A stretch of 64,000 nt of DNA, taken from positions 163,551 to 227,550 of the forward strand of contig JAPJBO010000322.1 in NCBI GenBank assembly GCA_030068145.1, written 5' to 3'. Positions 337 through 36,470 of this stretch are shown piece by piece. The DNA is from Diplonema papillatum. Lineage: Eukaryota > Euglenozoa > Diplonemea > Diplonemida > Diplonemidae. A program made the translations under genes and the position numbers. The stretch's first letter is position 1. Every line of letters starts with the position of its first letter. The notes beneath the pieces were generated by a model. That model did no database searches and was not told where the DNA came from. It saw nothing but the letters and a program-made list of their open reading frames with translations.

Positions 337-3300
337 ATGTCCGGCGGCGACAGCTCGAAAGACAAAGATGTCGACAGCGACGAGGAGCCGCAACGACGAG
401 CAGCTGTGCTTGAGTTCGTCCGAGAAGGTAAAGTGGAAGCGGTTCTGAGGCGGAGCGACCTCGCGGATGAAGACGAAGCGGATGAAGGCGCGCAGTCGCC
501 TTCTGTGCAGCAACCAGCAGTCCCTGCAGGCAGAGCCTTGGGGGGGGTGTCACACCCGGAGCTGTCCGAAGAAGACGCGAGGAGCAAACGGCTCGCAATG
601 CTGCAGCAAAAGGTAAAGAAGCCGCCGTCCGCATCCAACAGCCCAATCCGAACTGTGGGCACGTCGTCACCTTCCAAGCTACCATCTACCCCTGCTTCAC
701 CCTCCCCCCCACCGTCTGTCCCGCTAGCTGCTCAAAAGCCATCCACCCCCTCTTCGAACGACACCGCGAAGCAAATGTTCATGACATCGTTAGCCAAAGA
801 AAACAACCTTGGGTACCTGGTCCGGCACGTTTTGCAAATAAAGCGAAGCGACGCGGACTTCGACGACGACAGGATCCCGTCCCTCCTCTCCGGGATCTTC
901 CAAGGGCACACGGAAGGCCACGTTCTGATACAAAACGACAGCCTCTGGGCTGAATTGGATGGCACTGCTTCGTCGTTGAGCGAGGCTCTCGTCGAAAAAA
1001 TTCTGCGTGTGCACCCGTTGGAGGCCGACGATGCCTTTTTGATCTCCGCGTTCGGGAGGGCTGGACAAGCCATGAAGGACATGTTCGTCCGCGAATCGTT
1101 CTCGCCGGTGTGCACGACCCTGAGACGTGCTATCCGGCTGCATTACCTGAGCTCGTTCATCCCAGCGATGCTGGACGAAGACTCGCCGGAGCGGGCGAAA
1201 ACGCTGAAGCTCCTGCTAAACCACCCAGAGCAACACGCGGCGACGGACATGCTTTCCGAAGTTGCCGACCACCTCTCCGGGGACGAGGACATGGGGTTCG
1301 ACGTTTCCCGGTCGATCCTGGCCTTCCTCTTGGGCTCTCACCACCAATCTGCGCTCGAAGCACCCGCGTCAACCTCCCTCACGGAGCTGACCCGAATTTT
1401 GGGCTACGTTTTACGGCTTTGCCGGTCGAACGTCGGGTCCCAAGTGCTGTCGTCAACGATCAAACAAGAAACCATTCAATCGGCCCGGAAACTGGGAACC
1501 GTGGTGGCCATGCAATCCTGGGCCCGCCGGTTCCTGCTGACCCCGTCGCCGGAGGAGATCAAGTCGCTATTGACCGAAAACGTCCGAAACTACCCGAAGG
1601 CGCACCCCAGCGAGTCCGAAACGCTGCTGTCGCGCCCAAGAGAAATCGTGATGGGTATCACTCGAGACCTGGCGAGCCTGCTAAAGGACGCTTTGCTCAA
1701 AAAGGGCGCGGAGGGACGGAAGGTGACCGTCGACTGGATAGTCGTGGTCCTGCGCGCGTTCCAACCTCGGGCCGACCTATCGAAGGCGAACCAGGCGCGG
1801 ATGCGGCAAGAGAGGGGGCCCGACGTGTTTTGCCTGAATTTCGCGCGCGTCGCCCTTGAACTTGCCCAGCCGGTGTGCCAAAAATTCGGCGAGAAAGCGT
1901 CTCTGCGGTACGCCTCGAGCGCCGCTGCGGCGCAGGCGTTCCCCTCGTGGCTGCAAGCCACGCGACTGGACAAGCGCGAGGCGCTGGCCCCCGTGCACAC
2001 GGAGGAGTCATTCAACTTCGCGACGGAAATCTTATTTATCGCGGTGGAAGCCATGCACTGCCTGATCATGCCGTCCGTCAAAGTCGCCCGCTGGTCGCAC
2101 GAGGCGTACATGCGAGGTCTCGGAGAAGTGCAATCGCAAGGCGGGCACGTCAACCCCGTGGCGGAAGCGCGCCTGACCAACATTGCAGTGCAGTGGGACT
2201 ACTTGCGGATGCTGTTGCTGAACCCGAGCTTCGTGGACTTGGCGACAAAGCTGGCGGTGACGGCTTGCAGCGTTGTGCAAAGGGAGCTGCAGCAGGCCGG
2301 TGCGGGAGCTGATGTGCCTGATGTGGTCCTGGCCATGCCAGCGTTCATTATCGAAGATGCTCTTGACTGGGCTGTGTTCGTGTGCCAGGTGTGCGTCGTT
2401 CTCGCGAAAGGGAACCTGAAGCTCTACACTGTGAAGAATTCTCCGGCGTGCTGGTGCGGGGGTGTCAAAATGTCAACCGAATCAACCGAAACGACCGTGG
2501 GAATTTGCATGAAATCTGCTATCCGGTCCCTACTGAAAAGGGCATGGGCTTCCATTTTCATCGCTCATGGAAGAGCATTGGAGAGTTAGTGCAACAAGAG
2601 TTTTATAGACGAGGACCTTCACGATCTTCTCTTCAGGTAACGAACTCAGCGGGCGAGCCGCTGCGAAGTGGACATGGTTTTGCTCTTCTTGCCCGTTTCA
2701 ACAGCAACAAACCAACCAGAGACCACCGTCAGGTGTATGTACTTCATGAATTGAGTCTTGGACCTCCGGAACACCACAATCCAGTCGAACCCACGTTGCT
2801 CCAGCCAACAAACCTTAGTTTTGAACCCCACTCTAAACCCAAACAGTATGCGCCAAACCTGGTGCAGGGTGCGGAAGGTATGCCGCAACTTCTCGCGTTT
2901 GCTATCACCGCATGTACACACCCGACGCTGCTGACACGACAACCGATGCTGCAAACGAGAGTCGTCGCCCTGATCGCGGCCATGCAAGAGGGGAGCCAGC
3001 ACCAAAAGCAGCACGACGACGTTTGGGCCGCGTCGCAGTGGAGTGCTCACCGCAGCAGCACTTCACTGTTCAACATCGTCGAAAGTAGCCCCGCCTGCGC
3101 CATGCTCCCACAAGTCCTCTTCCGGGTGTATTCTACTGCCTCTTCTGAGGTATGCCTTTTCCCTTCGTCAAAAACCCTACTCCTATGAACAGAGAAGCAC
3201 CAGCAGACACTTCAAAAAACCCGAACGTGCAGAGTCTGGCACCGACAAACGTACAAATGCTTAATCCTTCGGGGGGGTTGAGGCTGCGCAGGAGGAGCGG

Positions 3301-5118
3301 AAGTCGATTGCCTTTCGCCCTGACGCCGTGCGAAAGCAACACAAAAACAAAAAGGGCTTCGACATGGACAAGGACGACCACTTGTCGCACTCGCGAGACC
3401 ACGTCCTCCCGCTTTTCGTGCAGCTGATCGTTGTGGACAGGTTCAAAGCTGGGCTGATTGAAGGCTTGAGCAAAGACCGAGGCGGCATAGAAGGGGAAGA
3501 AGACGAGTTCGCCATGTTCGTACACAAACTCGCGACAGAGGCGACACACTGCCTCGACGACGCTTTGAACCGTATGACGGAAGTCAACGATATCGCAAAG
3601 ACCATGGCCAACAAACCCCAGTGGACTGCCCTCTCAAAGGAGCAGCAATCTGTAAAAGAGCACCACTTCCAAGCCCAAGGACGGAGCGCTCGAGGCTTCA
3701 TGTCGTCGGCCATGCGTTGTTTGCAAGTCGTCCAAATGCTCCTCAACCCCACCCGTAACGAGAACCCGCAAACGGTCCCGAGGGCAATAGCGTCGGATCC
3801 AGTCCTGCGCTCAATCGCTCACTTGGTGCGATATTTCTGGGCCCAGCTACACGGCGCAAGGGGCCGGCAGCTCCGCACTCTGCCCACGCCTCAAAAGTAC
3901 GACTACGACCGCCTCAAGATCATCGGGACCCTGGCGCAGGTGGTCGCCTTGCTGTCGCACTCGGAGAGCTTCCTGCGCATCTTTTCCGCAAATGACGACT
4001 ACGAGCGCTGGGTGGTCCTCGCGACCGTCCAAGAGCTACAGCAGACGCAAATAGGCGGGTTGCCCCTCCTCCGCAAGATGACCGCCTTCGCCGAGGATCT
4101 GCAGCGACTGAACCCTCAATCCGGGACTGCTCCCAGTGCTGAATTGTCCGAAGCTGCTTGGAACCCGCCATCCGGTCAGGTCGTCGTGAACGACTGTGAC
4201 GCGTTCCGTGAAGAGTTCGAAGACATCCATTTCGAGGCGGTGGACCTCGCGGGGGAAAACAATAGCTACACTGGCTTCAGTTACAAGGAGCAGCTCGCCA
4301 GCTCGAGCCACTCGTCGGCAGCGGCGAAACAGCTTCTCAACGCCAGGAAACGGGAGTGGAAGCTTTTCGGCGACCTCCCGTTGTACCCGCAGGCCTCGAT
4401 CTTCATCCGGGCGGACGAAACGCGCATGGACGTGGTGAAAATGATTCTCACCGGCCCCGAGGATTCACCGTACGCCTACGGCATGTTCCTCTTCGACGTG
4501 TATCTACCACCCAGCTACCCGGACGTCCCCCCTCTGGTTACCTTAAAGACCACCGGAGGCGGCACTGTCCGGTTCAATCCAAACTTATACGAGTCCGGAA
4601 AGGTCTGCCTGAGCTTGTTGGGAACGTGGTATGGCGACGGGGCGGAGACAAAATGGCAGCCCGGGGTGAGTTCGCTGTACCAAATCGGAACGTCGATGCA
4701 GAGCATGATTTTGGTCCCGGATCCGTACTTCAACGAGCCTGGAAATGAGCGCCAGCAGGGCACAGAGGAAGGCGAAAAGTGGTCGGCAGATTACAATGAG
4801 GGCCTTCGCCTCGGAACATTGAGGTATGCCGTGCTGCAGACGGTAAAGACGCCGCCCGCAGGTTGTGAAGAACTTGTCCAGAAGTACTACAGTGTAATGG
4901 CGCCAGCTGTGCTGGCCACCGCGCACAAGTGGTGCTCTGAAGCTTCCGAAGCGCGGCGCCCGAAGTTCTTGAAGGTTCTCGAGCAGCTGCGAGAGGCTCT
5001 GGGCGACGGCTCCGACACCAGTGTTTGTATGCCACCTGTTTTTGTGCCTCACATTGCAATAGCAGAAAGATTCATGCCCAATTCTCCGAATGTCTCCGGA
5101 GTTAATCAAGATGGTTGA
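337..5118 (+). CDS. Ufd2/UBE4-like E4 core fused to a BIRC6/UBE2O-type E2 (UBC) domain, no U-box
   Basis: I read three exons: 337-2388, 2847-3149 and 3292-5118, all joined in phase 0 (donors GTGTGC and GTATGC, acceptors AAACAG and GCGCAG). The product is about 1390 residues. Residues 1-150 are low complexity, rich in Ser and Pro. Residues of roughly 300-1080 match the Ufd2 core: the GPDVFCLNFARVALELAQP block near 495, the FNFATEILFIAVEAMHCLIMP block, MPAFIIEDALDWAVFVCQ running across the first splice into YAPNLVQ, and in exon 3 the helices around LDDALNRMTEVNDIAKTM and PQWTALSKEQQ. A U-box should follow; none is present. Instead residues of about 1129-1300 form a large-type UBC domain with FNPNLY at 1213-1218 and the catalytic Cys1224 in GKVCLSLLGTW, then PYFNEPG, as in BIRC6 and UBE2O. 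Exon 3 has an in-frame stop at 5118, but a phase-1 GTATGC donor at 5027 may splice to later exons. The ATG at 337 is the first in frame. The inferred role is ubiquitin chain elongation with a built-in E2. Confidence 0.85.
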
Positions 5119-5982
5119 CCTACACTAGTTTATGCCCGGGAAGTTCAGCACGTTCTCACTGTTTTCACTAATCTTCTGGGGGATGCTGGGCAGGAATCGA
5201 CACCTCCACTTTTTTTGCAGAAGGCTTCGTGCTCACCCTTTCAAGTGTTTCCGGAGTTGATGTTAATGGTTGACCCACGTGCCGGTGTCTGACAGGACAA
5301 GGTCGACATTTTTTTATGTTGCGTTTTTAACGGTTTTACAGTTTCACTGCGGCATCCGCTTTTGGACCTCTGACAAGTGTCCATGTTATTGGTCACAAGT
5401 ACTTGGTGACGGCCCCCGACTTTCACTGTGGCATCCGCTTCTACTTTGGAGAGCTTGGAGAACTTTCTACCGCTGTTACATCTGCCGAAAGCTCGTAGTG
5501 GTATTTCTCTCTGGCGGCTCCCTCTATACTGCATAAAGGGGACCTGATGTATTATGCTAGGATGTGACCAAAATAATAGGGGAAAACGCCGAGGTGCCCG
5601 CAAGGGGTTTATTGAACCAGGGACAAATCCGCTACAACAGCAACAGTTTTGTTGAGAATGGTCGGCCGGAACCGCAGAAAGTTCTGCTGAAGGGAAATCT
5701 GGTGGCGGATCACCCAGTCATCTTCCAAAATGGTGCTGGACTCTTATGATGATGGGTAGGGCAGGAATCGACACCGTCGTTTAGAGACGAGGTGACACCT
5801 CAGCAACACCGGTGGTCCGTCTTGGCGGCTGTACAACTTATCAAGCTTCCATGTTCACCACAGCGGGTATCCCAACGCCCCGTGCCCCCCGCTGGGGAAA
5901 CGAGCCGTTTGCTTCGGTGGGTGAACACATGAAGAAAACAACACAGGCAAATGGCAAACAGCCGGACGGGCGCAGCTTTCAG
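5119..5982. other. Non-coding stretch with internal duplicated motifs
   Basis: No gene is convincing here; it is likely 3' UTR or intron of the upstream gene. Short motifs occur twice: GGGCAGGAATCGACACC at 5188-5204 and 5759-5775, a TCCGGAGTT...ATGGTTGACC block near 5095 and 5252, and CACTG(C/T)GGCATCCGCTT near 5345 and 5425. These look like local duplications inside non-coding DNA. Confidence 0.5.
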
Positions 5983-6530
5983 GCAGGAAAAGACCGGCAG
6001 GCACTCCTGAGGTATGCGAACAAAATGCATTCAGAACTGCATTTTTAGCACCTGTAATTGTGCTGAAGGAAGAGATTCGAGTTCACTAGCACTTGCCTAG
6101 TGTATTGGGAAGCGGCCACATGAGGTGTTTCTGAGCGAACCCCCCGTGTCGCCAAAAGCGAAGTTGGAGGGATAAAGCAAAAACTGACAAATGTAGGCCC
6201 ACCGTTTGCCCCCTTGTTTGTACTCCCCCCTTGAGGACCCAGCGTGTCGGAAACTCAAAACCGGCTGGTGAACGTGACAAGTTGGCTATACTTCCCCCGG
6301 ACGCCCACATTAAGCTATGAACGCGCAGACCACACACACACATACAGCGCCGACCGCCGTACAATCCACCGCATCTTCAGCACCACCAAGATGCTGAGTC
6401 ATCGCTTGGTACAAGCATTCTTGCAGCTTTGCAACAACAAGGTGAAGCGGTCTCGAACATGGACGAAGAGGGCCTGTCCGAAGATGAACAGCTGGCTCGT
6501 GCTCTTGCCAGGTCACTTGAGGACATGTGA
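5983..6530 (+). CDS. Candidate 3' exons of the E4-E2 gene ending in a ubiquitin-interacting motif
   Basis: The segment 6348-6530 is open from a CATACAG acceptor to a TGA at 6528-6530. It encodes a 60-residue tail whose end reads SEDEQLARALARSLEDM, a good ubiquitin-interacting motif: an acidic run, then the invariant Ala and Ser spaced A-x3-S. A 29-bp exon at 5983-6011 (acceptor TTTCAG, donor GAG|GTATGC) would link it in phase to the GTATGC donor at 5027 of the upstream gene (phase 1 into 5983, phase 0 out of 6011). The joined model gives an E4-E2-UIM protein. The motif and the phases are visible; the splicing is inferred, and the UIM exon might belong to a separate small gene. Confidence 0.5.
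6241..6347 (+). repeat. Dispersed repeat ending at a 3' splice site, copy 1
   Basis: About 107 bp starting AGCGTGTCGGAAACTCAA and ending in a short (CA)n tract and CAG, directly before the predicted UIM exon at 6348. A diverged copy lies at 19792-19913, again ending at an exon boundary. By eye, roughly four in five positions of the first 60 agree. Confidence 0.6.
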
Positions 6531-7197: not shown

Positions 7198-8672
7198 TGC
7201 CGAAGCAACTCGACAGGTCGGGCGCGGTGAGTTGGGTGAAGAGGGTGGTCGGGACTGATGTCCCGTCCCTTCTTTCATTCACCGCAAACAACCGCCGACT
7301 CGCGGCGGTACTCAAGGTCGCGCGCGACGTCGAGGGGACCGCGGAGGCGGGGCTGAGGCGCCTTCTGGGCGCCTTGGGGTACACGGACGAGGAGGCCCCC
7401 CCCGAAGGCGTGGCCCAGTGGGTCCTCGCGTGGCTGGCGGTCGCGTCGGCTCCGTCCGCCACCGCGGACGAGTTCGCGGACCTGCTCCGCTCGTCTCCGA
7501 AGGCCACGCCCCCGCCGCAGACGCCGGGGCACATGCCGCTCCCCGCGACCGTTTCTCCCGCTGACGACTCGACCACCGCTGCATTGTTCGGCCCATCTCC
7601 CCCAGCCGCGCGACGTGTCTCTTTCGCCGAGAGCGACGATCCCCTCAGCCCAGATGACGACGATCTGAGGGAATGCAACTCCGCCGGGGGCGGCCGGGAC
7701 GACCACGCGTCGGACATAGGCCGGCTGCAGCGTCAGATCGACCGCCTCACCGAGTTGGTGATGGCGGCCCTCCCAACGCGCACCTCGCCACCCGTCCGGC
7801 CTTCGCCCGCCCCTGAGGCAGCACCTGAGGCGGCACCCGCGGGCTCCCGTCCCGTTCCGCCCACGTCGGTGGGCACATGCCCCGGTCCAGTGCTGCATCA
7901 GCTTCCGGCGTTCACGAGACCACTCCCGCCGCCTCCGCCCCTCGTTGACGTTTCTCGCCTTCCGCGGGCTGTCCTGTTGCCGGACAATCCTCGCAACCTT
8001 CCGCAAGCCGTCGTGGGCGGTCCTCTGCCAGTGGGCTATCGCTGCCCGCCAGCCGCATCCTGCCACCAGCCGTACGCCGAGCCCCGCCAGCCCTACGCCA
8101 GCCATCCACTTCCGGATTTTCCGGAGGACCCGTCTTCGCTGGGGGGAGGCGGGTCGGTCCAGGGCTCCCACACGCTTCTCTCTCCCGGACCAGAGCTACT
8201 CGACCCCGAGCTCTGGGTGAGCCTCTCTCCCGTCGAGAGGTCTCTCGCGCTCGTCCACATCCGCGGCTTCTTCGCGGATATACTCGACGCCGTCCCGAGC
8301 ATCGCCAACGACGCAGGACACCTGCTCAGCCACGCAACGTCCATCATGCGTCTGATGGACGACTCCTCCGACCCCGACGCCCTGGTAGAGCTGGGGAGGG
8401 ACACCATCCACCGCATGATGGTCCTCAAGACGGCCTTGAAGGCCGGCTGGTCGTTGGCCGCCGGCCTCCAACACCGCCACCAGCACGAGGCCGGGTTCCC
8501 TCCGTATCTTCGGAACGCCTTTCAGGCCCTGCAGAAAGCCGAGGAACAGCCCGCCCCCAAGCCGTCCAGGAAGCGCAGCCCGAAGTCCCGCACCCAACAC
8601 CCGGGCGAAGCTCACCCCGACTCCCAGCACCCTCAGCGAGCAACCTCAGCCAAGGGGAGGGCCAGGCAGTAG
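7197..8672 (+). CDS. Gag-like ORF of the YR retrotransposon
   Basis: A 491-residue open frame starting at the ATG that touches the left direct repeat. It has an N-terminal helical region, a long Pro-rich centre (about residues 180-350) interrupted by a short coiled-coil-like stretch (IGRLQRQIDRLTELVMAAL), a helical block around residues 340-440 and a basic Arg/Lys-rich tail. I see no CCHC zinc knuckle. The assignment as gag rests on position and composition, not on a recognised domain. The next ORF continues in the -1 frame with no stop in between, so a -1 frameshift near the end would give a gag-recombinase fusion. Confidence 0.6.
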   Translation: MPKQLDRSGAVSWVKRVVGTDVPSLLSFTANNRRLAAVLKVARDVEGTAEAGLRRLLGALGYTDEEAPPEGVAQWVLAWLAVASAPSATADEFADLLRSSPKATPPPQTPGHMPLPATVSPADDSTTAALFGPSPPAARRVSFAESDDPLSPDDDDLRECNSAGGGRDDHASDIGRLQRQIDRLTELVMAALPTRTSPPVRPSPAPEAAPEAAPAGSRPVPPTSVGTCPGPVLHQLPAFTRPLPPPPPLVDVSRLPRAVLLPDNPRNLPQAVVGGPLPVGYRCPPAASCHQPYAEPRQPYASHPLPDFPEDPSSLGGGGSVQGSHTLLSPGPELLDPELWVSLSPVERSLALVHIRGFFADILDAVPSIANDAGHLLSHATSIMRLMDDSSDPDALVELGRDTIHRMMVLKTALKAGWSLAAGLQHRHQHEAGFPPYLRNAFQALQKAEEQPAPKPSRKRSPKSRTQHPGEAHPDSQHPQRATSAKGRARQ

Positions 8673-8677
8673 GTGCC

Positions 8678-9613
8678 TTGGACCGTTTCCCACCTCCTGT
8701 GGCGGGGCGACGCGGACGTCCTCTCCTGTCGGAGCCCCCGCTCTCCCCCGGCGAGCGGGAACGTCTTGTCCGGTCCGCGAACACGTACATTGGGGATGCC
8801 CTGGCGCTGTCCACGCGTCGCGGGATCCACTCCGTGTATCGCCGTTTTCTGGAGTTCCGGCGCCACTGGGAAGCGGTGTCCGACGATCCCCTCGACGTCC
8901 CGACGGCGCTGGTCCTGTTTGTGACTCGGCTGCTGGCCCGCGGGGATATCTGCGCAGCTTCTGCGGTGCAGTACGTCGTGAACGTTCAGTCGGCCGAGAA
9001 GCGTTTGGGGCGACCTGTCGACAGCCAGCTCGTCAGGGATTTTGTCAGGTCTCTGAAGCGGGCGGGCGCGATGAAGCCATCGAAGCAGGCCGTCCCGGTG
9101 ACGAAGGACGAACTGCATCATGCTGTTCGTTTGGAGTCGGATCCCGGCGTGCGGGTTGCGTTGGCCTTGGCATGGCAGGGGGCTGCGCGCGTGGACGACG
9201 TCCTGACGAGGAAGGCCGAGCACATCACCGAGGGTGCCGGTTTCTGGGCGGTAAACTGGGTGGGCTCGAAGTCGGATCCTTTCCGCCTAGGTCAGGTTAC
9301 GGGCGTGATTCTTCCGCCAGCTCAGGACCAGGAACTTCGCTCGCTGCTGTCTCAGACGCCGCCCGGCCGCCTCCTGTTTCCAGACATCCCTTTTCGGCGA
9401 GTTGTGTCCGCGCTGAAGCGCGCCAACCTCTCCCTCACGGGCCATTCCCTCCGGCGGGGTGCCCTGTTCCACCTGTTGAGAAGCGGGGTCGACCTGCGAG
9501 TGATTCAGAGCGTGTCGCGTCACACGACGCTGAGTGCTCTGATGCGGTACCTTCCGGAAGCGGAGGTTCCGCTCGTCCGGAACACCGCGGAGGCGTCGGC
9601 GAGTCTCCTATAG
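8678..9613 (+). CDS. Tyrosine recombinase of the YR retrotransposon
   Basis: About 310 residues with the full catalytic set of a tyrosine recombinase: the first Arg in GAARVDDVLTRK, a Lys-containing beta-hairpin stretch (WVGSKSDPF), the H-x-x-R box in GHSLRRGALFHLL, a second His in SRHTTLSALMRY and the nucleophilic Tyr in MRYLP. The N-terminal part (NTYIGDALALSTRRGIHSVY) resembles the SAM-like core-binding domain. There is no early ATG in this frame, which stays open back into the gag ORF, so expression by -1 frameshift or reinitiation is likely. The enzyme would join a circular cDNA to the target without a typical target-site duplication. It appears intact. Confidence 0.85.
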   Translation: MDRFPPPVAGRRGRPLLSEPPLSPGERERLVRSANTYIGDALALSTRRGIHSVYRRFLEFRRHWEAVSDDPLDVPTALVLFVTRLLARGDICAASAVQYVVNVQSAEKRLGRPVDSQLVRDFVRSLKRAGAMKPSKQAVPVTKDELHHAVRLESDPGVRVALALAWQGAARVDDVLTRKAEHITEGAGFWAVNWVGSKSDPFRLGQVTGVILPPAQDQELRSLLSQTPPGRLLFPDIPFRRVVSALKRANLSLTGHSLRRGALFHLLRSGVDLRVIQSVSRHTTLSALMRYLPEAEVPLVRNTAEASASLL

Positions 9614-11379
9614 CCTTTCGCCTCGAACCCCCCTTCCCGTTCAAGCTACCGAAGAGGAAAGTCCCCGACCCGCTGGCGGCGATTTATCCAGGGCCGGGGA
9701 GGATCCCTGACGTGGAGCTACCGCCCTCTACGTTCACCCCGTTTGTTGGTGTCGCGTACGGAGGCGATCTCCTTGTCAACAACTCTACGCCCCCCCCGTC
9801 GCAAAGCAGAAGAGGAGAGGACCTCGCGCCCATCTCGTCGTCATTCATGAACCTTGACAGGTTGTCAGCTTTGGACAGCCAGGGTTTGCTGCGTGGCGTG
9901 CTGGATGTGATTCGCTCTTGGGAGTCCTTCCGTTCTGCCCTACTCCCGGGAGCGGAGGAAGCGCTGACAGAAAGAGGGTTCACGCGGACGACGTCAAGGC
10001 GCATGCTTCGTCATCTCCCGGATCTGGTTAAGTATGGAGTGACGGAGCTTGCTTCGAGCCCGTCAAAGGTCGTCCTCCCTGCCTTCACTGTCGACAAGAA
10101 GAGCGGGGGGCAACGATTCGTATGTGACGGGCGGAAGCTCAACGCGATCATGGCGCGTCCGCCTCCGATGCTGCTTCCTTCCGTGCACGAAGTCATCGAC
10201 CGCGTCCTGGCCTCGTCCGTGGTTTTTCTCGCAGACGCCAGGAGCTATTTCTATCAGTTCCGGCTGGACGCGAGAATCCGCCCATTTTTTGGCATGCACT
10301 TGGCCGGACCGCGGGGCCATTTCGTGAAGGCTCAGCTCGTGGCCATGTGCATGGGCTGGAGCTGGGCTCCGGCGATAGCGCAGAGGGCCTCTCGAGTACT
10401 CCTGCCGGAGTCTGACGGTCTGCCCTGGGTCGACAACTTCGTCGTCGTTGGGGATTCGTTGGGAGAAGCAACTTCGCGGTTTGACTCTTTTTTGCAGCGC
10501 TGCAAGAGCGTCAACTGCGAGCTCAACGAAAACGACGAGCAGTTTGGAATACCGCTCAGGGAGTTCGACCTTCTGGGCCTCCACTTTGACCTTTCCCATT
10601 CGAACCGCCCCGCTCGATACAGAATGGCGGACGCATGGGTGACGAAGTTACTTGGCTCTGCCGAACTCACCAGAGTTAAACGCGGAGGGGCGTCACCCCG
10701 CGAGTTTTACCGGGTGTTTGGGGCTTTGGTCTGGTTTGCCTACACCACGCATTTCCAGCTGGCCTACGCCCGGTGTTCACTGTCCTTCCTGCAGAGGCTG
10801 GCCTCATCCCTGGTGGAGCCAGCTGACTGGGACATCTCCAGGACGGTTCCGCCCTCGACCGTGCGTGAGGTGGAGCACCTCACCTCCCTCGTCGAAGACA
10901 ACCGCTGGGTCAGTCGTTCGAAGTCGATCTCCTCATCGGTGACTCTCTGGACAGACGCCTCATCATCATGGTGGGCCGCAGTCCTGGAGGGCGAACCTGA
11001 GCGGATATCGCAGGGCCCGTTCTTGAAGTTGAGACACACTCACATCTTTTTAAAGGAGTTGTTTGCGGTCCTTAGGGGCATAAACCTGACCGCAAGGTTT
11101 CACACGAATACGCGCATGAGACTCATGGTTGACAACCTTCCGGCTGTCCAGTGTCTCGTCAAGGGGCACTCGAAGAACTTTGCAGCAAATGTCCTTTTGG
11201 CGAGGATTTTTGATGCTGCGCGGGCGGCCGGCCTTGTCATCAGTGCCGAGTGGGTACCGACTGATAAACAGAGAGCCGACCCGTACACCCGCGGGGTGCT
11301 AGCCAGAGAGGACGACACGCCAGAGGGCGTCTGGTCGCCTCAAGCGGAGGACCTTGCTCCGCCTTCAGATTTGGTGTAG
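9614..11379 (+). CDS. Reverse transcriptase/RNase H of the YR retrotransposon
   Basis: The frame is open from 9172 (overlapping the recombinase in the -1 frame) to a TAG at 11379; the recognisable protein begins after the recombinase stop. RT motifs include KSGGQRFVCDGRKLNAIM, VVFLADARSYFYQFRLD and LPWVDNFVVVGD, followed by an RNase H domain with LWTDASSSWWAAVL, LKELFAVLRGI, LMVDNLPAVQCL and DKQRADPYTRG. The order and spacing fit the DIRS-like RT-RH module. In the catalytic box the second Asp of the usual (Y/F)xDD is Asn (W-V-D-N), so the element may be inactive or belong to a lineage that tolerates this change. Coding ends 28 bp before the right direct repeat. Confidence 0.85.
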
Positions 11380-11719: not shown

Positions 11720-12776
11720 GCACAAAACGAAGTGCAGCTCAAGACGGCCACTGATGCACACAGACTCCTACTCATCATAGAGTATTGCACAACATTGAAC
11801 CGTGAAAAGCGCAAATGTTTTACAAACAGACGTGTCCGCCCACCCACCAATCCACCACACACACTTGGGCGATACTTCGCTTCAGGGTTCCCCGTGATTG
11901 AATTCCAACACAAACACACACACTCACACCGTTGCACTTGTTTTCCATATTCTCTATATTCCTTCTTCTGTATTTCTTTTCTTCAAGCGCCTCAAAAGAA
12001 GAGAACTTCTCTTACTGCCTTTCGCCTGGTCGTTGTGTGACTTCTGCATTGAGCTTCTTAAGCGACAGAGTTTACGGTTTAAGAATGCAAGAGTTGAATG
12101 ATTGGCCGCAGGAAGCGGGTGGAAGAGTGAGGACATGCAACCACCACTGCACATCCTTGGGGATCAGGCATGTTCGTCGTCTTCTTTTTTCCTTTCCCAT
12201 TCGACGACGCCATTCGCCGAGAAAAGAGGAGATGAAGTAGCGTGTTTTGAACCCGAAGGAGTGCTACTTGTTGTTTGCATTTTGTCCTGGTCACCATGCC
12301 CTGCCACTCTAAAGTTTGGTTGTACCACCAGCGGGTTACTCTCTTCAACGTTGTTTCGAAGAGAGTCTTCCTAACCTGTACCAAGCTGCACCGGGATGAT
12401 GGCCCACCTTGTGTGTCCGTGACTACAAGAAAACACAGAGCAATAGGATGCGGGGCGCCGTTGAAATGCATGCAGGCGCCAGCGGCTGGGCGCCCTGAGT
12501 TAGTTACTGCTTGCTAAAACACGGTTGTACTCTCGAAGGTAGATCTGTGCTCTTGTAGCATGGGTAGCTCTGGCTAACGAGCTCCGAAGCCACCTGCTGG
12601 CCGACCGTGAGTCTGCCTGGCTTACATGGCCAAAATACGAAACTCGCATGGCATCTGGGAAACCAAGTGCCTGTCCACTTTCGGAGCATGCGGTCATTAT
12701 TCAAGTCAGACGTACCAGGAACCCCTCCCTTGGAATAAAGGAAGACAAACGAACAAGAAATAGGGGACAAAGTGCA
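11428..12776. other. Intergenic, CA microsatellite, putative UXS promoter
   Basis: No gene is seen. A (CA)n microsatellite lies at about 11684-11718 and other CA-rich patches lie near 11890-11935. The end should contain the promoter and 5' UTR of the UXS gene that starts at 12777. Confidence 0.5.
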
Positions 12777-15700
12777 ATGGAGCGCCGTCGGGCGGAGGTG
12801 CGGACTGTGGTGCTCACAAGTGTCATAACAGCCCTCACATGTTACATCATGATGAGTTCGAAGGAAGAAAGGATAAAGACTTCTCCGAAGACAGACGAGC
12901 TGATATCGAAAGTGTACCAGCTGAGGAACGATGTACGAGACACACTGACGAAGAATCGTGAGTTTCCAGGCGTAGCTGACCTGCCTTCCAGCATGAAGAA
13001 GCGAATTCTTGTGACAGGTGGTGCTGGGTTTGTAGGCTCAAACCTGGTGGATGTGCTCATGCAGGAAGGTCACCAGGTAACCGTCATGGACAATTTCTTC
13101 ACTGGGCGAATGGAGAACATCGTGCACTGGGTCGGGCACCCGAACTTCAATCTCATCGAGCACGATGTCGTCGACCGTTTCAACTTAGTCGTCGAACAGG
13201 TCTACCACCTCGCTTCGCCAGCATCTCCTCCACATTACATGTTCGACCCTCTGAAAACCATTGAAACGAACACAATCGGCACGAAAAACGTTCTCGAAAT
13301 CGGTCGGTCCGTCGGGGCACGGATCTTGTTCACCAGCACATCTGAAGTGTACGGGGATCCGAAGGTAAACCCGCAGGCAGAGACGTACTGGGGGAACGTG
13401 AACCCCATTGGGCCCCGGGCCTGCTATGACGAAGCCAAGCGCCTCGGCGAGACGATGATGTACTCGTACCGGCAGCAGTATCACGTCGATGTTCGTGTCG
13501 TGCGTATTTTTAATACTTTCGGGCCCCGAATGCATCCCAACGATGGCCGTGTGGTGAGCAACTTCATTATCCAGTCGCTACAGGGAAGATCCCTCTCGAT
13601 ATATGGCTCTGGGCAGCAAACGCGGAGCTTCCAGTTTGTCGACGACCTCGTTCGCGGGATCAAAATGGCTATGGAAGGAAACTACTCCAATCCTATAAAC
13701 CTTGGGAACCCAGACGAGTACACCGTGAAGCAGTTTGCTGAAATCATCAAGGTACCGTATCTTTTTATTATGCACGATTCTTTTCAAGCAAGTTCCAAAG
13801 CAAAAGGGGTTCAAGTGCTTCGTTTGTGTGGCGGACACTCGAATATTCTCCGGCGTCGTGATTGGGTGTAGTCCAGTCCTTCTAGCATTATTTGTGGATT
13901 AGAAGGTCGGTATTTTAAAGTCTCCGGTTGACCGTAGAGGCTGGTATGGAGGGGATTGAGAAAAGTGAGAGGGGGCAGCTCGTTTCGGGTGATGTGTCGT
14001 TCCGTTGTGAAACCTTGTGAAGTACCCTAACGCGTTTAGGGGGTGTTTGGGATTGGGTAGGGTGTGGTCGTTCTGCTACGGCGTGAAAAGCCAGGAAGTT
14101 TCGACGCTAATCTTCGACTCTTGATTAAGTTCACCGGGTTGCGTGCTCGTCAGGAAGATCCCGGTGCCTGGCTTTTCTTCTGGGTGGTTTCGTGTTGCTC
14201 GGCGGCTGTGTGTTACGCGGCACGGCAACGTTTTAGGTCATCTCCGAGGCTTCCGCGGCATATTTTGCCGCCACTGGGCCTCCGAACTTCTCAAGCTGCT
14301 GCTTTCTCTGTGTAGTGAACTTTCCTTTCCTCTGCCTTCACTGCCACAGTTTGTTTCGTGTGTTTGTGGATGCAGGCTTTCAAGCTGTTTATGAACTCGG
14401 GAACCGAATTTGCTTGTGCTTTTAGCGTTATTTGAGGATTAGGTCTCCTTGACTCGCTGTCGCTGGGCTCGCTAGATGCCAAGGGCTCACGGACGTACCT
14501 GCGGACCGTTGCCATCCAGAGAACCTAATAATGCACCTGCAAACGGCACCGAGGCCAATATTCAAAAAGCCGGTGCCTCCTAAGTCAGCGGCAACTGAAT
14601 GGTACCCGAGGTGTCCTTGTCTTGAAAGCAGGACACAATGCCAGCTACAAAACTGCAGTTGGCATAGCCTTATTTCGTTCTTTTGCTATCTTCACTTGGT
14701 ATTCCTGTCGGAGCCTCGAATACGGGTCAAATACATGGTTCTTGAGTGGTTTACACATTCTCGTATTTCACTCGTATCATTCTCGGATGCGAGAATATGC
14801 GAGAATTTACGGGGAGGAAAAAAGGAAAGAACTGGGGAGGAAAATAGGGGAGAGGGGAAGTTGGGGTTTTGAGGGCTGTCCTCGGGGTACGGGGGGGGTG
14901 GTTGGAGGGGTTGGGTGACACTTGCGCTGTTCGCATGGAGGCTCGTTGGCTCGAAGAAGTGACTTCTACTTCGGCAATTCTTTGCAGTATAGCAGAGCAA
15001 ACGGGGAAGCAACGACTGCAGGAAAGACAGCTGTGATGTTCAATACGGAACGGCGGGCTCTCGTGACAACGCTTGAGAAGTCAAGTACAGCCGTCCTACA
15101 CGGCCGGCTCACCGCCAACGTCGACGCGATGGACGGGTGCTGCAAGAGGTCTGGGACCGATCCTGAGGAGCGCGCTGGGCCGTCGAAGGTTTCATCTTAC
15201 ATAGCTAAATGAACCTGTGGGACGTCACCGTGGGCGAGGTGCTCAGGGGGCGGCAAAAGTCAACGTGTTGGGTTGGCTGTTGACGCTCGGGCGAGCGCTT
15301 TGCCCGACGAGCTGCTCGACAGGCTCGCGGACTTGTACTGTTTTGAGGAGGCGATGGCCGAAGTACCTGACGACCTTTGTCTCGCTCATCCCAAAGAGCA
15401 AGGCCCCCCCCCTCTGAACCCGACGAACCTGCGGCCCACCGTGACGAGCTGCAAAAACATGCTGTGGGATGTGGATGACAGTGAGTGTGCCCACGGGAAA
15501 GCTCTTGGGTGGGAATCAGGGGGACTAGATTTCCCCCCTGAAACCCTCCTTCCCACCTCTGCTGTATCTGTTCACTGGGCACCCTGGAACCAGTAGCACA
15601 AACGGCAAACAATTCTGACGTCCATCCATCCGTTCGCTGTACACGGACGAAGACACACAGCTTGAACATGGGACCTCAAGCATGTTTTTCTGCTGTTACT

Positions 15701-20024: not shown

Positions 20025-21540
20025 GCCAAGCTTCATATCCTGTACAAGCGCCAGGATTTGCGTTTTGGACTTGCCGATCCGAGGTTTGGCAACTGGAAGG
20101 GGCAAGTGATGTGCCAGTTCGGACACAAACAGGTTCGTGATCCACAAAACAAGGCCAAGTTCATGTTCCGCACGTGATCCACAGAACACGACAAAGCCAG
20201 AGCCCTGCGCAGCATCGGTCACATGATGAGGAGGTCTTGGACACGTGTTGACAGACCAAGTTGGGCTTTTCAACTGTTCTCCGGCCATCCGGCTCCTGTG
20301 AAGGTTCCTCCTCCCTCTCTGCAATTGTCAGTGTGCTCAAGAAGGGAGACCCGAAACGGATGTGTCACCGTCCAGCTACACTGACTCAAGAGATACGATC
20401 CATATCCCCTCGCCCATCTCCGTTACTGTGGAAATCTTGTCTCTTCCCGCATCAGTCTCTAAGAAATACTCAAGCCGGTCTACCCTTATTCCCTGGACAG
20501 TGCGAGCCTTAGCAAAAACCAGCTAGCTATAGCTAGCTAGCTATTGCTGAAAGTAGCTACAATACAGAGCATTTCCAAAATGTCAGTAGTATCCGAGAAT
20601 TTTCTCGGATTTTGTGCCATGTGCCTTGTTCCAGAGTTTTCGAGCTTCTTCTATAATGATTAGCATGGGGGCTCACACCGTGCTACCCCCATCTGCATGG
20701 GCCCATGATGGGGATTCACTCTATTGGTGGCTGATTTTCAACGAAGACGACATGAAGGTAGTCTCAGGCGTCTATTTTAGCTACGTTTGCTATTTATAGC
20801 AAAGTCTCACACTGCCTGGAACTGCTGTTGGTTGTCGCTGTCTGTCACGGTTCTAGCAGGTCCATCCCTATCCCCCGAGCTGCACAGAGGTGCCTGGTGC
20901 TGTATTTCATGGTCTTCGCGGTCTATCAGGAGGATACAGACCATCTTATGAACATGGATACCACCCCGGCTCAACATGAACAAATCGAAACCGCTCCTTC
21001 ACACTTCCGATCGAACATGCAGTTCGGGTAAGACACAAGCAGGCAGCTGCAAAGGACAAGCACAAGTAATAGCGAACCGTTCTGCATTCGCCTGCCTGTG
21101 ACCAGGGCACCGCTGTTGAGTGTATTCAGAGAACAGCCCTTAATCTCCTAACCCCTCCCCCAAAGATTTCCATCCATTCGGAACACTTTTCTTCCTTGTG
21201 GAGGGGACCGCCAGAAGTTTGTTTCTCTTGCCCGCTTACTGCGTGGTACCGATGCAGAATTTCGCAAAGCAGTTAGGTATATGGGCCTCTTCTTCAGTTT
21301 GGCTCATACCGAAAAGGATGTACACCAGCTTGTACAAGAATCGAAGTAATGGTCGTGTGCACTCGCACCCTCAAAAAGACACATGTGGTGATGCAGCTTT
21401 CAAAGTTTTCGAGCGGTATATAGACGATGTTGTCGTCTTGCTCGGTCCGTCTCGTTGAACTGAACCACTACAGAACGACACACCACTCTACCTTGAACGC
21501 GACAACAGCTTCACTCAATAGGGAGAGGGGGGAGAAGAAC
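20025..21540. other. Intergenic between the tandem UXS genes
   Basis: No complete gene is seen. There is a short AGCTAGCT-rich palindromic patch near 20520. The promoter of UXS copy 2 must lie at the right end. A frame ending near 21458 contains FERYIDDVVVLL, which looks like an RT catalytic box but has no other support. Confidence 0.4.
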
Positions 21541-23891
21541 ATGACAGCAGATGTACGCCTCATTGCGACAGCGGCGGTGACAACGGTGCTGGTGTATCTG
21601 GGGACTACAGCGATGTTGCCCAAAACACAGCAAGACGGCCCTGTTCGCGATGTTGTTGTCCAGGAGCGGTTGGAGGCAGAGATTCATACATTGAAGACAC
21701 AGTTGACCCACAAGCGAACCGCCCAGGATGTGGCGAAGCTGTTCCCAACCACCGCGAAGCTCGATTCATCCAAAAGGAGGAACATCCTGATCACAGGCGG
21801 AGCCGGGTTTGTCGGGTCAAACCTTGCCGACGTCCTCATGAAAGAAGGCCACCGAGTAACCGTTCTTGACAACTTCTTCACAGGGAGACTCGAAAACATT
21901 ATTCATTGGGTCGGGCATCCCAACTTCAACTTTATTGAACACGACGTAGTCGATCGAGTATCACTGGTGGTGGACCAGATCTACCACTTAGCCTCACCCG
22001 CATCACCGCCACACTACATGTTTGACCCGATGAAAACCATCCGAACGAACACGATCGGCACTGAAAACATGCTCGAAATTGCGAGGGCCACCGGAGCTCG
22101 TGTGTTGTTCACTAGCACATCTGAAGTGTACGGCGATCCGTTGGTCCACCCGCAAGTGGAAACATACTGGGGGAACGTGAACCCGATTGGGCCCCGGGCC
22201 TGCTATGACGAAGCCAAACGTCTTGGTGAAACGATCATGTACTCGTATCAGGCACAGTACAAAGTCGATGTTCGTGTCGTCCGTATTTTCAACACATTCG
22301 GACCCCGAATGCACCCCAACGATGGTCGTGTCGTAAGCAACTTCATTATCCAAGCCCTGCAAGGCCAGCCATTGAGTATCTATGGATCAGGCAGCAACAC
22401 TCGCAGCTTCCAATTCGTTGACGACCTCGTTCGTGGGATCAAGCTCACTATGGAGGGAAACTGTTCTACACCGATCAACATCGGGAACCCAGACGAGTAC
22501 ACCGTCAAGAGTTTCGCAGAAAAAATTCTCGTATGCAACCTCAGCTCCTTCTTCGACGTGTATGAACATACGATCAAGAAGGAGGCAAATGAGAAACGAC
22601 CTCAGGCTCTTAGCGAACGAAGTCACAGAGATGAGGCTGATTGTGGGATCACCCTCTGAAACCTTGGGTGTCCATCTTAAACACGGGGGACCAAATCACC
22701 CCCGTGTTCAAGATGGATTTGCTTTCTCGCCCATTACCCATCTTAATTAAGGGAGTTTCGCTCATCTTAAACACGGGCCAAAAAAGAGGTAGGTAGGTCT
22801 TCAAAAGTAGGATCCGCCCTCTGCAGGGAACCGCAACCAGACACGGAAACGGACCTTTGTTCGTATCCGGCCTCTTTCAACTATGCTACCTGGTGCTGCT
22901 CTCGCAAGACCTTTGAGTGCCGGTAGGTGCGGGTTTTATCCCCGTTTGAATAGTCTCTGGCCATTGGGTGCAATGCGCACTTTTCCGTTTCCACAAGTTT
23001 CCTCCCAATTGCCGAAGCTGTCCTGCCCAAACGCAAAACAGAAGACAGGACAAGATCATTAAAGCAAGAGGTGCAAGTTCTTTCATTGGAAACCGAAATG
23101 ATTGCGAAAAAGAAATGAACCAGGATATTCCGAATAATATACACCACAACATTCACACCACAGAGCTTGACGAAGTCATCGAGCGAGATCCGCTACTTAC
23201 CACCTTCAACAGACGATCCGACACAGCGCAAACCCGACGTTTCCAAAGCCCTAAAACAACTAGGTTGGAAGCCTGAGATGGGTGTCGATGAGGTATGGCA
23301 GTCATGATGATACTCGTGCCCATGTGCGGGCACTCTTCCGCCATGTTTGCGATCGGGAGGGAGGAGAGTTGCTGTGTGCTCCTGCGGTCTTTGCCAACAG
23401 GTTCACCCCCCCGCACGCCAAGTCCGCCCTTCGGTATAAGTTCGTCCAGAACTTCACTCACTTCGTTCACGAAGTTCTTGATCCCTCTCTCTCTCTCTCT
23501 CGGAAAAGGTCGCGTTGGCAGAAACGGTGAAGATGATAATTGTCACAGGGTTGGTGAAATGAAAGCGAGAATTTGGGGTAAGCCCTGATTATTAGATTCA
23601 CGGTTAAACGAAGCTAGCGCACAAGGTTTGCCTGATCTCGCACCTACTTTCCGATACCAAATAGATGCTCTATTCAAACTCTCTCTCTCTCTAAGGATGT
23701 GCACACAGGCTGAACACTACAAACAGGGCCTTCGTTTGACAATTGAGTACTTCAAGGAGCAGCTGCGGAGGAATGGAGGGCATATCGACACTGTGGGGCA
23801 AAATCCTCAGAAGCCAGGCTATCTCAAAGAGCCTGTCAGAGTTAACCCTGTCGACATAGGCGTGGATCCAGCTGTTCATGGCGGATCGTGA
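21541..23891 (+). CDS. UXS: UDP-glucuronate decarboxylase (UDP-xylose synthase), tandem copy 2
   Basis: Three exons, 21541-22530, 23164-23292 and 23727-23891, phase 0 throughout, give about 427 residues. Intron positions are the same as in copy 1, and exon 2 is 129 bp in both, so the genes are a tandem duplication. A membrane segment (LIATAAVTTVLVYLGTTAML) follows a five-residue tail. The SDR motifs TGGAGFVGSNL, TSTSEVYGDP and CYDEAKRLGE are all kept. Exon 2 reads SLTKSSSEIRYLPPSTDDPT and ends LGWKPEMGVDE; exon 3 starts GLRLTIEYF. I take the acceptor at 23726 rather than the CAG 18 bp upstream because the upstream choice inserts six residues that the family lacks. The C-terminal tail is about 18 residues longer than in copy 1. 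Introns are only 633 and 434 bp. Frames upstream of 21541 are open but unlikely to be translated. Confidence 0.9.
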
Positions 23892-34420: not shown

Positions 34421-34709
34421 AACTCCCATTAATACTAACTCGTCAGGCTGCAATGCCTGGAAAATGCAAAGAGAAGTTGCACACAGCCATGCGCTGTTGT
34501 CCAGTTCTTCACAGAAACATGGTTTTCCCTGCCTTTGCGTTCTACTTGCTCCTCTGATCCTCACAGCAGTAAGTTGAGGCAGTCAACACAAATGCACAGC
34601 ACAACAAACGGACTCCAGCACATGTTTTAGGCCTCGGATCAACTCGGAGCAACTTTATAGGAGGTTATATCTACATGTAGCAGGTTCATCAAGGAAAGGA
34701 AATCCCCCC

Positions 34710-36470
34710 ATGGTGTTCACACTTTTTGTGGCAACAGATGTCAGAGGAGTTCATGTGAATATCGAGTTAAATTTTCCACATGTGCCCAATCTCGACGAAG
34801 TTCGAAATGTTGCTGAAAAGGAGTTCGAATCGCAAGGTTACCACCTGCCTCCTGGTAGAAAGACTCTTCAGGTGAACGACTCTGGGCATTTGCAGGAACC
34901 AGTCGCACAAGCGGATCTCAAAGAATACTGCCAACTTTTCATGGCGACCATACAAGAAAACACGAGCGGTCCACAAGGCATTTCAAACAGCTACACTGTG
35001 AAGGCAACACCGGCAGCTTCTTGGTACGGACATGGATCCGCATCTCCTATTGTGACTCCACCTGACCAGAGGGAAGGGTTTCAAAATTTGGCAGCTCAGA
35101 GACAGACTTACGGACTTGGCCGTGGGGGAGCATTGAGCAGAGGCATCCCGAGGGCACACAATCGGCTTTCCACACCCCGCCTTTGTGTCGAAAGGGGCCC
35201 CGGGTCGCTAGCCGATGCAGGGCACAAGAGGGACGAAATGGCAGAGTTCGTTTTCTCGGAAATTACAGCTGGGCAAAACATTGCTAGCACTTCACGAGTA
35301 ATTGATAGAGAGCTATTCCTGTGTATCTTCCAACGACATTTTGGCAATGGGCCACTGAGCAGAGATAGCGGAAGCATTTCCGACGTCTTCGCCAAGTGTG
35401 ACGAAAACAAAGATGGGGTCCTGGACAAACGCGAGTTTGTCCAGGTGTTCGGCGCAAAAAAGTATCCTACACTGCTGGAGTCCCTGTACAGGCGAATGCA
35501 ACACGACAAAGCGACACAGAAATCACAAGCAGCTCTAGCTCAGCAGAGAGAAGCTTTGTCCGAACTGGAAGCAAAGAGATTGGCTGCTCAAGAACAGCAC
35601 CAGGCCACTGTGCAGCAGGCTTTGGATCTGAACAACAAGCTCAATGCCCAGACCAACTGCTTGTCAGCATCGCGGGCGAGAGAGCAAGACACACGAAAAG
35701 CGTTAGAAAGGGCACAACTCGATGCTGGGAACTCCCGAGGACAGCTGCATGTGCACATGGAGCATTGCCAAGCACTTGAAGAGGATGAGGGTGCACGCCT
35801 CACCACAGTAACCGACCTGGGGAGTCGCATAGCAAAACAACAGTTTGTTGCCAACAAAGCCTCGAAGGATGCTCAATGCGAATCTGACAAGTTGGAAGAG
35901 CTTCGGAAGCTCCTTGATGAACAGCAAGCACTGGTCCACCGCATGCAAGCAGAAGCAGACCAGGCACAGCAGGACCTCAGGAGCATGCGGGACAACTTTG
36001 TATCTGCTGAAGAGGCTGTGAGTGCAGTACGGAATGAGCAATTTGCTGCCAAAAAGGCGATTGATGATCTCGAAGCAGTAGTTGCCCTTCGTGTGGAGGC
36101 AGAACATGAAGCTGCAACATCGCATCGAAATGCTGTGAACGAGGTAGCAAGAGAACAAGCAAAGCGCGATCTGCTTGAAAGAGAGTTAAACTCAGTGCAT
36201 GAGAGCGAAGCAGTTGTTCGTGCACAAGATGTTGACACACAGCGTGCAGAAGAAGCTGCTTCTGCGAAGTTGGTTGACATGCAAACAGATGTTCACGAGG
36301 CGCAGTCTCGCTTCGAAGCATTGGATTCCGAAGAGCAGAGAATGCTTCAGCAAGAGGTCGAGCTCCAGTGTAGAAAGGATGAGATAGAACAAACTGAAAC
36401 TGCCCTCCGCTCTCAACATCGTCAGCTTTCTGTTCGTTTTGCGGATCAGGCGGTAGAATACCGCTATTGA
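34710..36470 (+). CDS. EF-hand and coiled-coil protein, single exon
   Basis: An intact 586-residue frame. Residues of about 1-85 form a compact N-terminal domain (VFTLFVATDVRGVHVNIELN, PHVPNLDEVRNVAEKEF) that I do not recognise. A short linker follows. Residues of about 195-255 contain one clear EF-hand with loop DENKDGVLDKRE at 231-242 (Asp1, Asn3, Asp5, Asp9, Glu12 all present) and, before it, a helix pair that may be a degenerate partner. From about 260 to the end the protein is an almost unbroken Glu/Gln/Ala-rich coiled coil. There are no membrane segments or signal peptide. This layout is common in cytoskeletal, basal-body or flagellar proteins, but no function can be assigned. Codon use is less GC-rich than in the transposons, as expected of a host gene. 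Confidence 0.85.
   Translation: MVFTLFVATDVRGVHVNIELNFPHVPNLDEVRNVAEKEFESQGYHLPPGRKTLQVNDSGHLQEPVAQADLKEYCQLFMATIQENTSGPQGISNSYTVKATPAASWYGHGSASPIVTPPDQREGFQNLAAQRQTYGLGRGGALSRGIPRAHNRLSTPRLCVERGPGSLADAGHKRDEMAEFVFSEITAGQNIASTSRVIDRELFLCIFQRHFGNGPLSRDSGSISDVFAKCDENKDGVLDKREFVQVFGAKKYPTLLESLYRRMQHDKATQKSQAALAQQREALSELEAKRLAAQEQHQATVQQALDLNNKLNAQTNCLSASRAREQDTRKALERAQLDAGNSRGQLHVHMEHCQALEEDEGARLTTVTDLGSRIAKQQFVANKASKDAQCESDKLEELRKLLDEQQALVHRMQAEADQAQQDLRSMRDNFVSAEEAVSAVRNEQFAAKKAIDDLEAVVALRVEAEHEAATSHRNAVNEVAREQAKRDLLERELNSVHESEAVVRAQDVDTQRAEEAASAKLVDMQTDVHEAQSRFEALDSEEQRMLQQEVELQCRKDEIEQTETALRSQHRQLSVRFADQAVEYRY

What the first reader, a model, noticed from the sequence alone, without database searches (positions are those of the whole stretch)
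337..6530. E4 (Ufd2/UBE4) core fused to an E2 (BIRC6/UBE2O-type UBC) in place of the U-box, possibly with a UIM tail
The Ufd2 core is recognisable across three exons and ends where the U-box should start, but the same exon continues into a UBC domain with FNPN and the catalytic Cys in GKVCLSLLGTW. Established: E4 enzymes recruit an E2 through the U-box to extend ubiquitin chains. Inference: this protein has replaced recruitment by a covalently attached E2, making an autonomous chain-elongation enzyme. A UIM at 6348-6530, phase-compatible through a 29-bp exon, would add a ubiquitin-binding tail. I know of no described protein with this architecture.
Basis: partly seen in the sequence, partly recalled or inferred. 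Interest (0 to 1): 0.88.

Follow-up and report, generated by a model that had tools for sequence, protein, structure and literature searches.

The report
Ubiquitin E4 with built-in E2
A gene of the protist Diplonema papillatum makes one protein in which the enzyme that hands over ubiquitin is built into the enzyme thought to lengthen ubiquitin chains, and the same fused design turns up, apparently unnamed, in animals, fungi and green algae.

Summary
The fusion is real. One uninterrupted exon (3355-5026) encodes the C-terminal part of a Ufd2/UBE4 core and then a BIRC6-type E2 with its catalytic cysteine (codon 4606-4608); no U-box. The AlphaFold2 model of that exon is confident (pLDDT 91, pTM 0.91): core on yeast Ufd2 575-870, E2 on BIRC6.

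It is not a one-off. Of 120 listed homologues (824 found), 67, one being this gene's annotation, carry core plus E2 and none a U-box: diplonemids, animals, chytrids, green algae. Trees of both halves, after dropping some rows, separate fused from unfused proteins by one branch, so one ancient fusion is most likely. Rhizophlyctis has a fused and an ordinary E4; in Diplonema papillatum only two Ufd2-core genes were found, both fused. Some relatives have a predicted membrane anchor, some animal ones also an EF-hand-like loop.

Most likely it is a self-contained ubiquitin chain-elongating enzyme, perhaps Cdc48-linked; activity is untested. Ten literature searches listed no description.

The parts
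337..2388 (+). Exon 1: start codon, low-complexity N-terminus, N-terminal half of the Ufd2/UBE4 core
   Evidence: Ufd2P_core match in frame 268-2589, E 3.7e-12; start resembles that of P0003/P0004; donor agrees with P0002-P0009, while P0001 uses a later donor that none of these eight supports
571..600 (+). EDARSKRLAM: short basic N-terminal motif resembling the p97/Cdc48-binding motif (VBM) of UBE4B; two of three consensus arginines
   Evidence: position; motif pattern in 14 of 67 fused proteins against 0.18 in shuffles and, in the first 80 residues, in 94 of 237 listed canonical E4s; consensus from PMC5559722 passages
2847..3149 (+). Exon 2: middle of the Ufd2 core
   Evidence: GT-AG introns; both junctions aligned with P0002-P0009; Pfam gives no Ufd2 match for this exon alone but the joined product is one stretch 436-1035
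3355..5026 (+). Exon 3: C-terminal part of the Ufd2 core and the whole E2 module in one open frame
   Evidence: AlphaFold2 of 3355-5025: pLDDT 91.0, pTM 0.91
3364..4119 (+). C-terminal Ufd2 core, equivalent to yeast Ufd2 residues 575-870 (the yeast U-box matches start at about 872)
4189..5022 (+). BIRC6-type E2 module (UBC fold plus the flanking elements shared with BIRC6)
4606..4608 (+). Catalytic cysteine codon of the E2 (GKVCLSLLGTW)
   Evidence: cysteine invariant in alignments A4 (35 rows) and A5 (32 rows)
5947..6011 (+). Exon 4, linker (CKWQTAGRAQLSGRKRPAGTPE)
   Evidence: AG acceptor and frame; CKW in P0002-P0004, CQW in P0005
6348..6530 (+). Exon 5: C-terminal tail with stop codon
   Evidence: homologous tails in P0002-P0004
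6480..6527 (+). UIM-like motif EDEQLARALARSLEDM
   Evidence: Pfam UIM 17.2 bits, below the cut-off of 21; similar motif at the C-terminus of P0002, P0003, P0004, P0006, P0007; position

Best explanation
The gene encodes a single-polypeptide E2-E4: a Ufd2/UBE4-type helical core whose C-terminal U-box is absent and whose place is taken by a BIRC6-type ubiquitin-conjugating domain. It belongs to an ancient eukaryotic family, most simply formed once, kept beside the ordinary U-box E4 in at least one chytrid and, in Diplonema papillatum, apparently instead of it. Likely mechanism: E1 charges the built-in E2 cysteine with ubiquitin; the core and the ubiquitin-binding tail (UIM) hold an already ubiquitinated substrate, probably one handled by Cdc48/p97; the E2 then adds further ubiquitins without a separate E2 or U-box. 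Shown by computation: domain content and order, one-exon junction, lack of a detectable U-box, conserved catalytic cysteine, family distribution, fused/unfused split. Inferred: charging, chain elongation, Cdc48 link, ubiquitin binding by the tail.
For: Both domains in one exon. Seven transcript-derived relatives carry both (P0002-P0008). Core and E2 match by sequence and by predicted fold, the E2 beginning about 23 residues after yeast-equivalent residue 870. Ufd2P_core 67 of 67, UQ_con 67 of 67, U-box 0 of 67 in the fused set at E <= 0.01. Catalytic Cys motif in the window protein and 64 of 64 other fused rows checked. One branch separates fused from unfused: E2 96/75, 98% of 200 bootstrap trees, on 75 rows that I chose; core 100/100 on 47 rows. 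Rhizophlyctis has one protein on each side of the core tree. Both Ufd2-core loci found in this genome are fused. UIM-like motifs recur: C-terminal in six diplonemid-group proteins (window included), near the N-terminus in several green-algal-group ones.
Against: No biochemical data. The E2 could start chains on substrates (BIRC6 and UBE2O act without a separate E3; recalled) rather than extend them. The Cdc48-type motif has two of three consensus arginines, and the UIM is below Pfam's cut-off. The UIM pattern is loose: 8.6 of 67 proteins have it after shuffling against 21 observed. Canonical E4s in the trees are fungal wherever named. The E2 split is not starred (96/75). In the first 120-row E2 tree the label needed four changes, two forced, before two long-branched proteins, one fragment and six near-copies were dropped and two rows were relabelled as fused. 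Three of six yeast Ufd2 chains align on to model residue 307 and chain residue 925, inside the U-box region.
Confidence: 0.68

Rival explanations
1. It is an E2/E3 hybrid in the manner of BIRC6 or UBE2O: the Ufd2-like core is a substrate- or chaperone-binding scaffold, and the enzyme starts ubiquitination rather than extending chains.
For: The E2 is closest to BIRC6 and then UBE2O. Among the unfused relatives of the E2, several are named BIRC6 (trees). That BIRC6 and UBE2O work this way is recalled.
Against: The scaffold is specifically the E4 core, and UIM-like motifs recur, which fits a substrate that already bears ubiquitin. Neither point measures activity.
Confidence: 0.25
2. The two halves are two genes, or a gene-prediction or assembly artefact.
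For: The annotation P0001 has an exon edge that no relative supports, so predictions here are not to be trusted blindly.
Against: Both domains lie in one open frame of one exon; seven transcript-derived relatives and annotated proteins of many other species carry the fusion.
Confidence: 0.01
3. The fusion arose several times independently, or spread by horizontal transfer, instead of descending from one early event.
For: Patchy distribution among the listed hits (a capped list); long branches in both trees; E2 split not starred; four changes of the fused label in the 120-row E2 tree.
Against: Both halves give one split; chytrid fused cores lie on the fused side and not with the canonical E4s of chytrids, including Rhizophlyctis' own.
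Confidence: 0.15
4. The E2 is an inactive or non-ubiquitin conjugating domain serving structure only.
For: None found beyond the absence of activity data.
Against: Cysteine and surrounding motif conserved in all 65 fused rows checked, and the cysteine invariant in both alignments.
Confidence: 0.04

Closest known systems
Ufd2 / UBE4A / UBE4B (U-box E4 enzymes)
   Different: No U-box; an E2 stands in its place
BIRC6 (BRUCE/Apollon) E2 module
   Different: No BIR domain in the Pfam scan; a Ufd2 core instead of the BIRC6 scaffold
UBE2O and UBE2Z
   Same: Same subgroup of large E2s by sequence and fold
   Different: Weaker matches than BIRC6; they are not known to have a Ufd2 core (recalled)
P0009, the second fused protein of the same genome
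   Same: Ufd2 core plus E2; residues 756-1279 are 38% identical to the window frame
   Different: A predicted N-terminal membrane segment and no UIM tail

Membership tests
Ufd2/UBE4 U-box E4 ligases | Ufd2P_core domain | tested here: met
   1.9e-42, 146.0 bits, cut-off 20.4; fold match
Ufd2/UBE4 U-box E4 ligases | C-terminal U-box | tested here: not met
   No PF04564 at E <= 1 in the window protein or at E <= 0.01 in 67 fused proteins; the 23 U-box matches of the genome lie on other contigs than the two Ufd2-core loci
Ufd2/UBE4 U-box E4 ligases | N-terminal p97/Cdc48-binding motif (UBE4B type) | tested here: inconclusive
   Motif class present, two of three consensus Arg
Ufd2/UBE4 U-box E4 ligases | Ubiquitin chain elongation activity | not testable with these tools
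   Needs protein
Ubiquitin-conjugating (E2) enzymes | UBC domain with catalytic cysteine | tested here: met
   UQ_con 2.4e-18; Cys codon 4606-4608, invariant in relatives
BIRC6 | BIRC6-type UBC module | tested here: met
BIRC6 | BIR domain | tested here: not met
   Pfam at E <= 1 lists Ufd2P_core, UQ_con and weak UEV, RWD and UIM_2 only
UIM proteins | UIM above Pfam cut-off | tested here: inconclusive
   17.2 bits against cut-off 21; motif conserved in relatives
Fused Ufd2 core-E2 family (unnamed) | Core followed by E2, no U-box, falling on the fused side of both trees | tested here: met

The most novel reading that the evidence does not exclude
A whole ancient class of self-contained E2-E4 enzymes, possibly as old as the last common ancestor of eukaryotes, has gone unnamed, perhaps because the standard laboratory species lack it (none appears among the named fused hits, a capped list; Nematostella does). 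In several lineages it is anchored in a membrane, in a number of animals with an EF-hand-like loop on the predicted non-cytosolic side, faces Cdc48/p97, and extends ubiquitin chains without recruiting an E2; in Diplonema it has replaced the ordinary U-box E4 altogether.
Probability: 0.35. Interest if true: 0.88.

Novelty: new variant of a known kind. Interest (0 to 1): 0.76.

Why it matters
E4 enzymes are described as helpers that borrow an E2 through a U-box. A family in which the E2 is welded on would let chain extension be studied in one protein, would show that this scaffold can do without E2 recruitment, and would add a branch to the ubiquitin system present in molluscs, a brachiopod, lancelets, Nematostella, a sponge, chytrids and green algae. 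The predicted membrane-anchored forms suggest a link with protein quality control at a membrane, which is testable in culturable species.

Tried and rejected
Two-gene or missing-U-box-exon reading: rejected, core and E2 share one exon and 0 of 67 fused proteins has a U-box at E <= 0.01. Private fusion of this organism: rejected. Hidden canonical Ufd2 in this genome: not found. PF10408 gave four matches at two loci, both fused. U-box PF04564 gave 23 matches, none on contigs C322 or C87. For 20 of those 23, the loci held (about 3.2 kb each) gave no hit with my core profile at E <= 1; a profile of whole canonical E4s hit 18 frames there, in its U-box part, in one case (L026) starting 49 positions further upstream. 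I took 9 kb around L026 and around the best U-box (L010): no core hit better than E 1.3, and the L026 frame looks like a WW plus U-box protein by eye. A canonical chytrid E4 as query found only the window gene (5.9e-4) and the C1056 U-box (7.8e-4). Very divergent or intron-split cores could escape all of this.

Literature: ten searches of openly licensed PMC papers listed no paper that I could recognise as describing the fusion. Only passages were read: PMC5559722, PMC6548493, PMC7838096, PMC3087547, PMC11354881, PMC5303827, PMC4327156 ('Ufd2' does not occur in its main text). PMC6548493 mentions a Biomphalaria 'ufd-2' sequence that showed the Ufd2P_core only, without a U-box; whether that is a fused gene I did not check. 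Supplements could not be read, so a listing of this architecture in one is not excluded.

E2 tree on all 120 rows: the fused label needed 4 changes, 2 forced. I then found that P0071 and P0076, counted as unfused, have a divergent core, and dropped nine rows: P0016 and P0021 (long branches), P0046 (fragment), near-copies P0038, P0056, P0076, P0088, P0094, P0117; after that one branch. The trees use rows that I chose, leaving out some long-branched and near-copy rows. One of the 18 canonical rows (P0295) has no U-box in the precomputed domains. Attempts to get canonical E4s beyond fungi failed: wherever searches give an organism name, it is a fungus. Rfam and tRNA scans of the window were empty.

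Full report
What is there. The E2's best solved relatives are BIRC6 (1.7e-62), then UBE2O and UBE2Z; the core alone finds yeast Ufd2 weakly (2e-4). The catalytic Cys codon is 4606-4608.

Gene model. Relatives decide the splice edges. P0001 ends at 5022, without the tail, but P0002, P0003 and P0004 have tails that align with exon 6348-6530, and a small exon at 5947-6011 gives the CKW stretch that they share. My model is 337-2388, 2847-3149, 3355-5026, 5947-6011, 6348-6530, 1424 aa. It rests on homology and GT-AG sites, not on RNA from this organism.

Family. One search found 824 proteins at E <= 0.001 and listed 120. Of these, 65 carry PF10408 and PF00179 in the precomputed domains and two more (P0071, P0076) by my profile and Pfam: 67 of 120, P0001 being this gene. 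Named sources include Gigantopelta, Liolophura, Haliotis, Nucella and Littorina (molluscs), Lingula, Branchiostoma, Nematostella, Dysidea, Gaertneriomyces and Rhizophlyctis (chytrids), Trebouxia, Myrmecia, Scenedesmus and Sanguina (green algae), Ulva (read from the code Ulvmu1) and Diplonema. Pfam on all 67: core 67, UQ_con 67, U-box 0. The Cys motif is present in the window protein and the 64 fused rows checked with it; P0071 and P0076, then counted as unfused, were not flagged either. The cysteine is invariant in both alignments.

Trees. E2: 111 rows, 64 fused and 47 unfused, one branch, SH-aLRT 94; 75 chosen rows, careful method, 96/75, 98% of 200 bootstrap trees. Before that, on all 120 rows, four changes were needed, two of them forced (dropped rows in Tried and rejected). 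Core: 53 rows (40 fused, 13 canonical), one branch, 100; 56 rows (38 and 18), one branch, 100, with Rhizophlyctis' fused and canonical proteins on opposite sides; 47 rows (33 and 14), careful, 100/100. Canonical rows are fungal wherever named, and the unfused E2s are those nearest to the query. One early fusion is the simplest reading; vertical descent against transfer is not settled.

This genome. The window is G000:C322:163551-227550 of a 271-Mb assembly. P0009, named Diplonema papillatum, is 100% identical to contig C87 over residues 686-1296, and its longest contig and C87 are both 420,299 bases, so I take the organism to be D. papillatum (Diplonemea, Euglenozoa). Only two loci match PF10408, the window gene and P0009's, both fused. 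No canonical E4 was found, with the limits stated in Tried and rejected.

Accessory parts. UIM-like pattern: 21 of 67 fused proteins against 8.6 in shuffles; at the C-terminus of the window protein and P0002, P0003, P0004, P0006, P0007, near the N-terminus of green-algal proteins such as P0030, P0035 and P0036. Basic motif like the UBE4B VBM: 14 of 67 against 0.18 in shuffles (the P0077 hit may be chance), and 103 of 237 listed canonical proteins in the first 250 residues, 94 in the first 80 (4 of the 237 lack a precomputed U-box). Ube4b binds p97 through an N-terminal VBM of consensus PsiRXXRXXR (PMC5559722 passages); the window's copy has two of the three arginines. Hydrophobic segment (hydropathy 2.0 or more in the first 160 residues): 11 of the 47 fused proteins with at least 380 residues before the core, 0 of 112 such canonical ones; in P0015 and P0025 that peak is at the very start and looks like a signal peptide, by eye with a further hydrophobic segment downstream. 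The window protein has none. EF-hand-like loop: 9 of the 17 fused proteins of the animal group (metagenomic members placed there by the tree), by eye between a likely signal peptide and a hydrophobic segment.

Mechanism. From the families: yeast Ufd2 extends and branches chains, interacts with Cdc48 and hands substrates to Rad23 (PMC5303827 passages). BIRC6 and UBE2O act as E2/E3 hybrids (recalled). Joining the two gives an enzyme that should need E1 and ubiquitin but no separate E2. That it elongates is inference; that it initiates is the main rival.

Novelty. None of ten full-text searches listed a description that I could recognise; a survey of animal U-box ligases describes Ufd2-related proteins as having a C-terminal U-box (PMC3087547, passages). 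Several species records call these proteins uncharacterized, and one (Dysidea) E4 A-like.

Noticed in passing
G000:C87, locus L005 1561-7556: Second Ufd2 core-E2 gene of the same genome (P0009, 1296 aa) with a predicted N-terminal membrane segment; the window copy has none but has a UIM-like tail.
   Followed up: partly
L005 941-1459 and 7621-8238: Further matches to parts of P0009's core and E2 (50-96% identical in pieces) on either side of the gene, looking like partial tandem copies.
   Followed up: no
P0015, P0018, P0020, P0023, P0025, P0028, P0039, P0048, P0058, first 80 residues: Fused proteins of the animal group carry an EF-hand-like loop, by eye between a likely signal peptide and a hydrophobic segment: a possible lumenal calcium sensor on an E2-E4.
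   Followed up: partly
window 7949-11379: Retroelement: frame 8440-11379 matches reverse transcriptase weakly (3.2e-4, under the cut-off); the overlapping frame 7949-9613 looks like a tyrosine recombinase by eye (recalled motif), so perhaps DIRS-like.
   Followed up: no
window 12543-13871 and 21424-22659: Two frames of NAD-dependent epimerase/dehydratase type (4.5e-50 and 1e-52), possibly duplicates.
   Followed up: no
window 49591-54045: Long frame with endonuclease/exonuclease and reverse transcriptase domains (1.6e-12, 7.2e-19): looks like a non-LTR retrotransposon.
   Followed up: no
window 34578-36470: 630-residue frame with weak EF-hand matches (1.9e-4, under the cut-off).
   Followed up: no
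P0111 (Crassostrea, annotated as origin recognition complex subunit 1): A BIRC6-like E2 joined to ORC1-type domains in one annotated protein; may be a gene-prediction artefact.
   Followed up: no
PMC7838096 (passages): A Chlamydomonas gene called Ufd2 on the strength of PF10408 (Cre09.g398350) rises under lead stress together with ERAD genes; whether it is a fused or an ordinary E4 was not checked.
   Followed up: no
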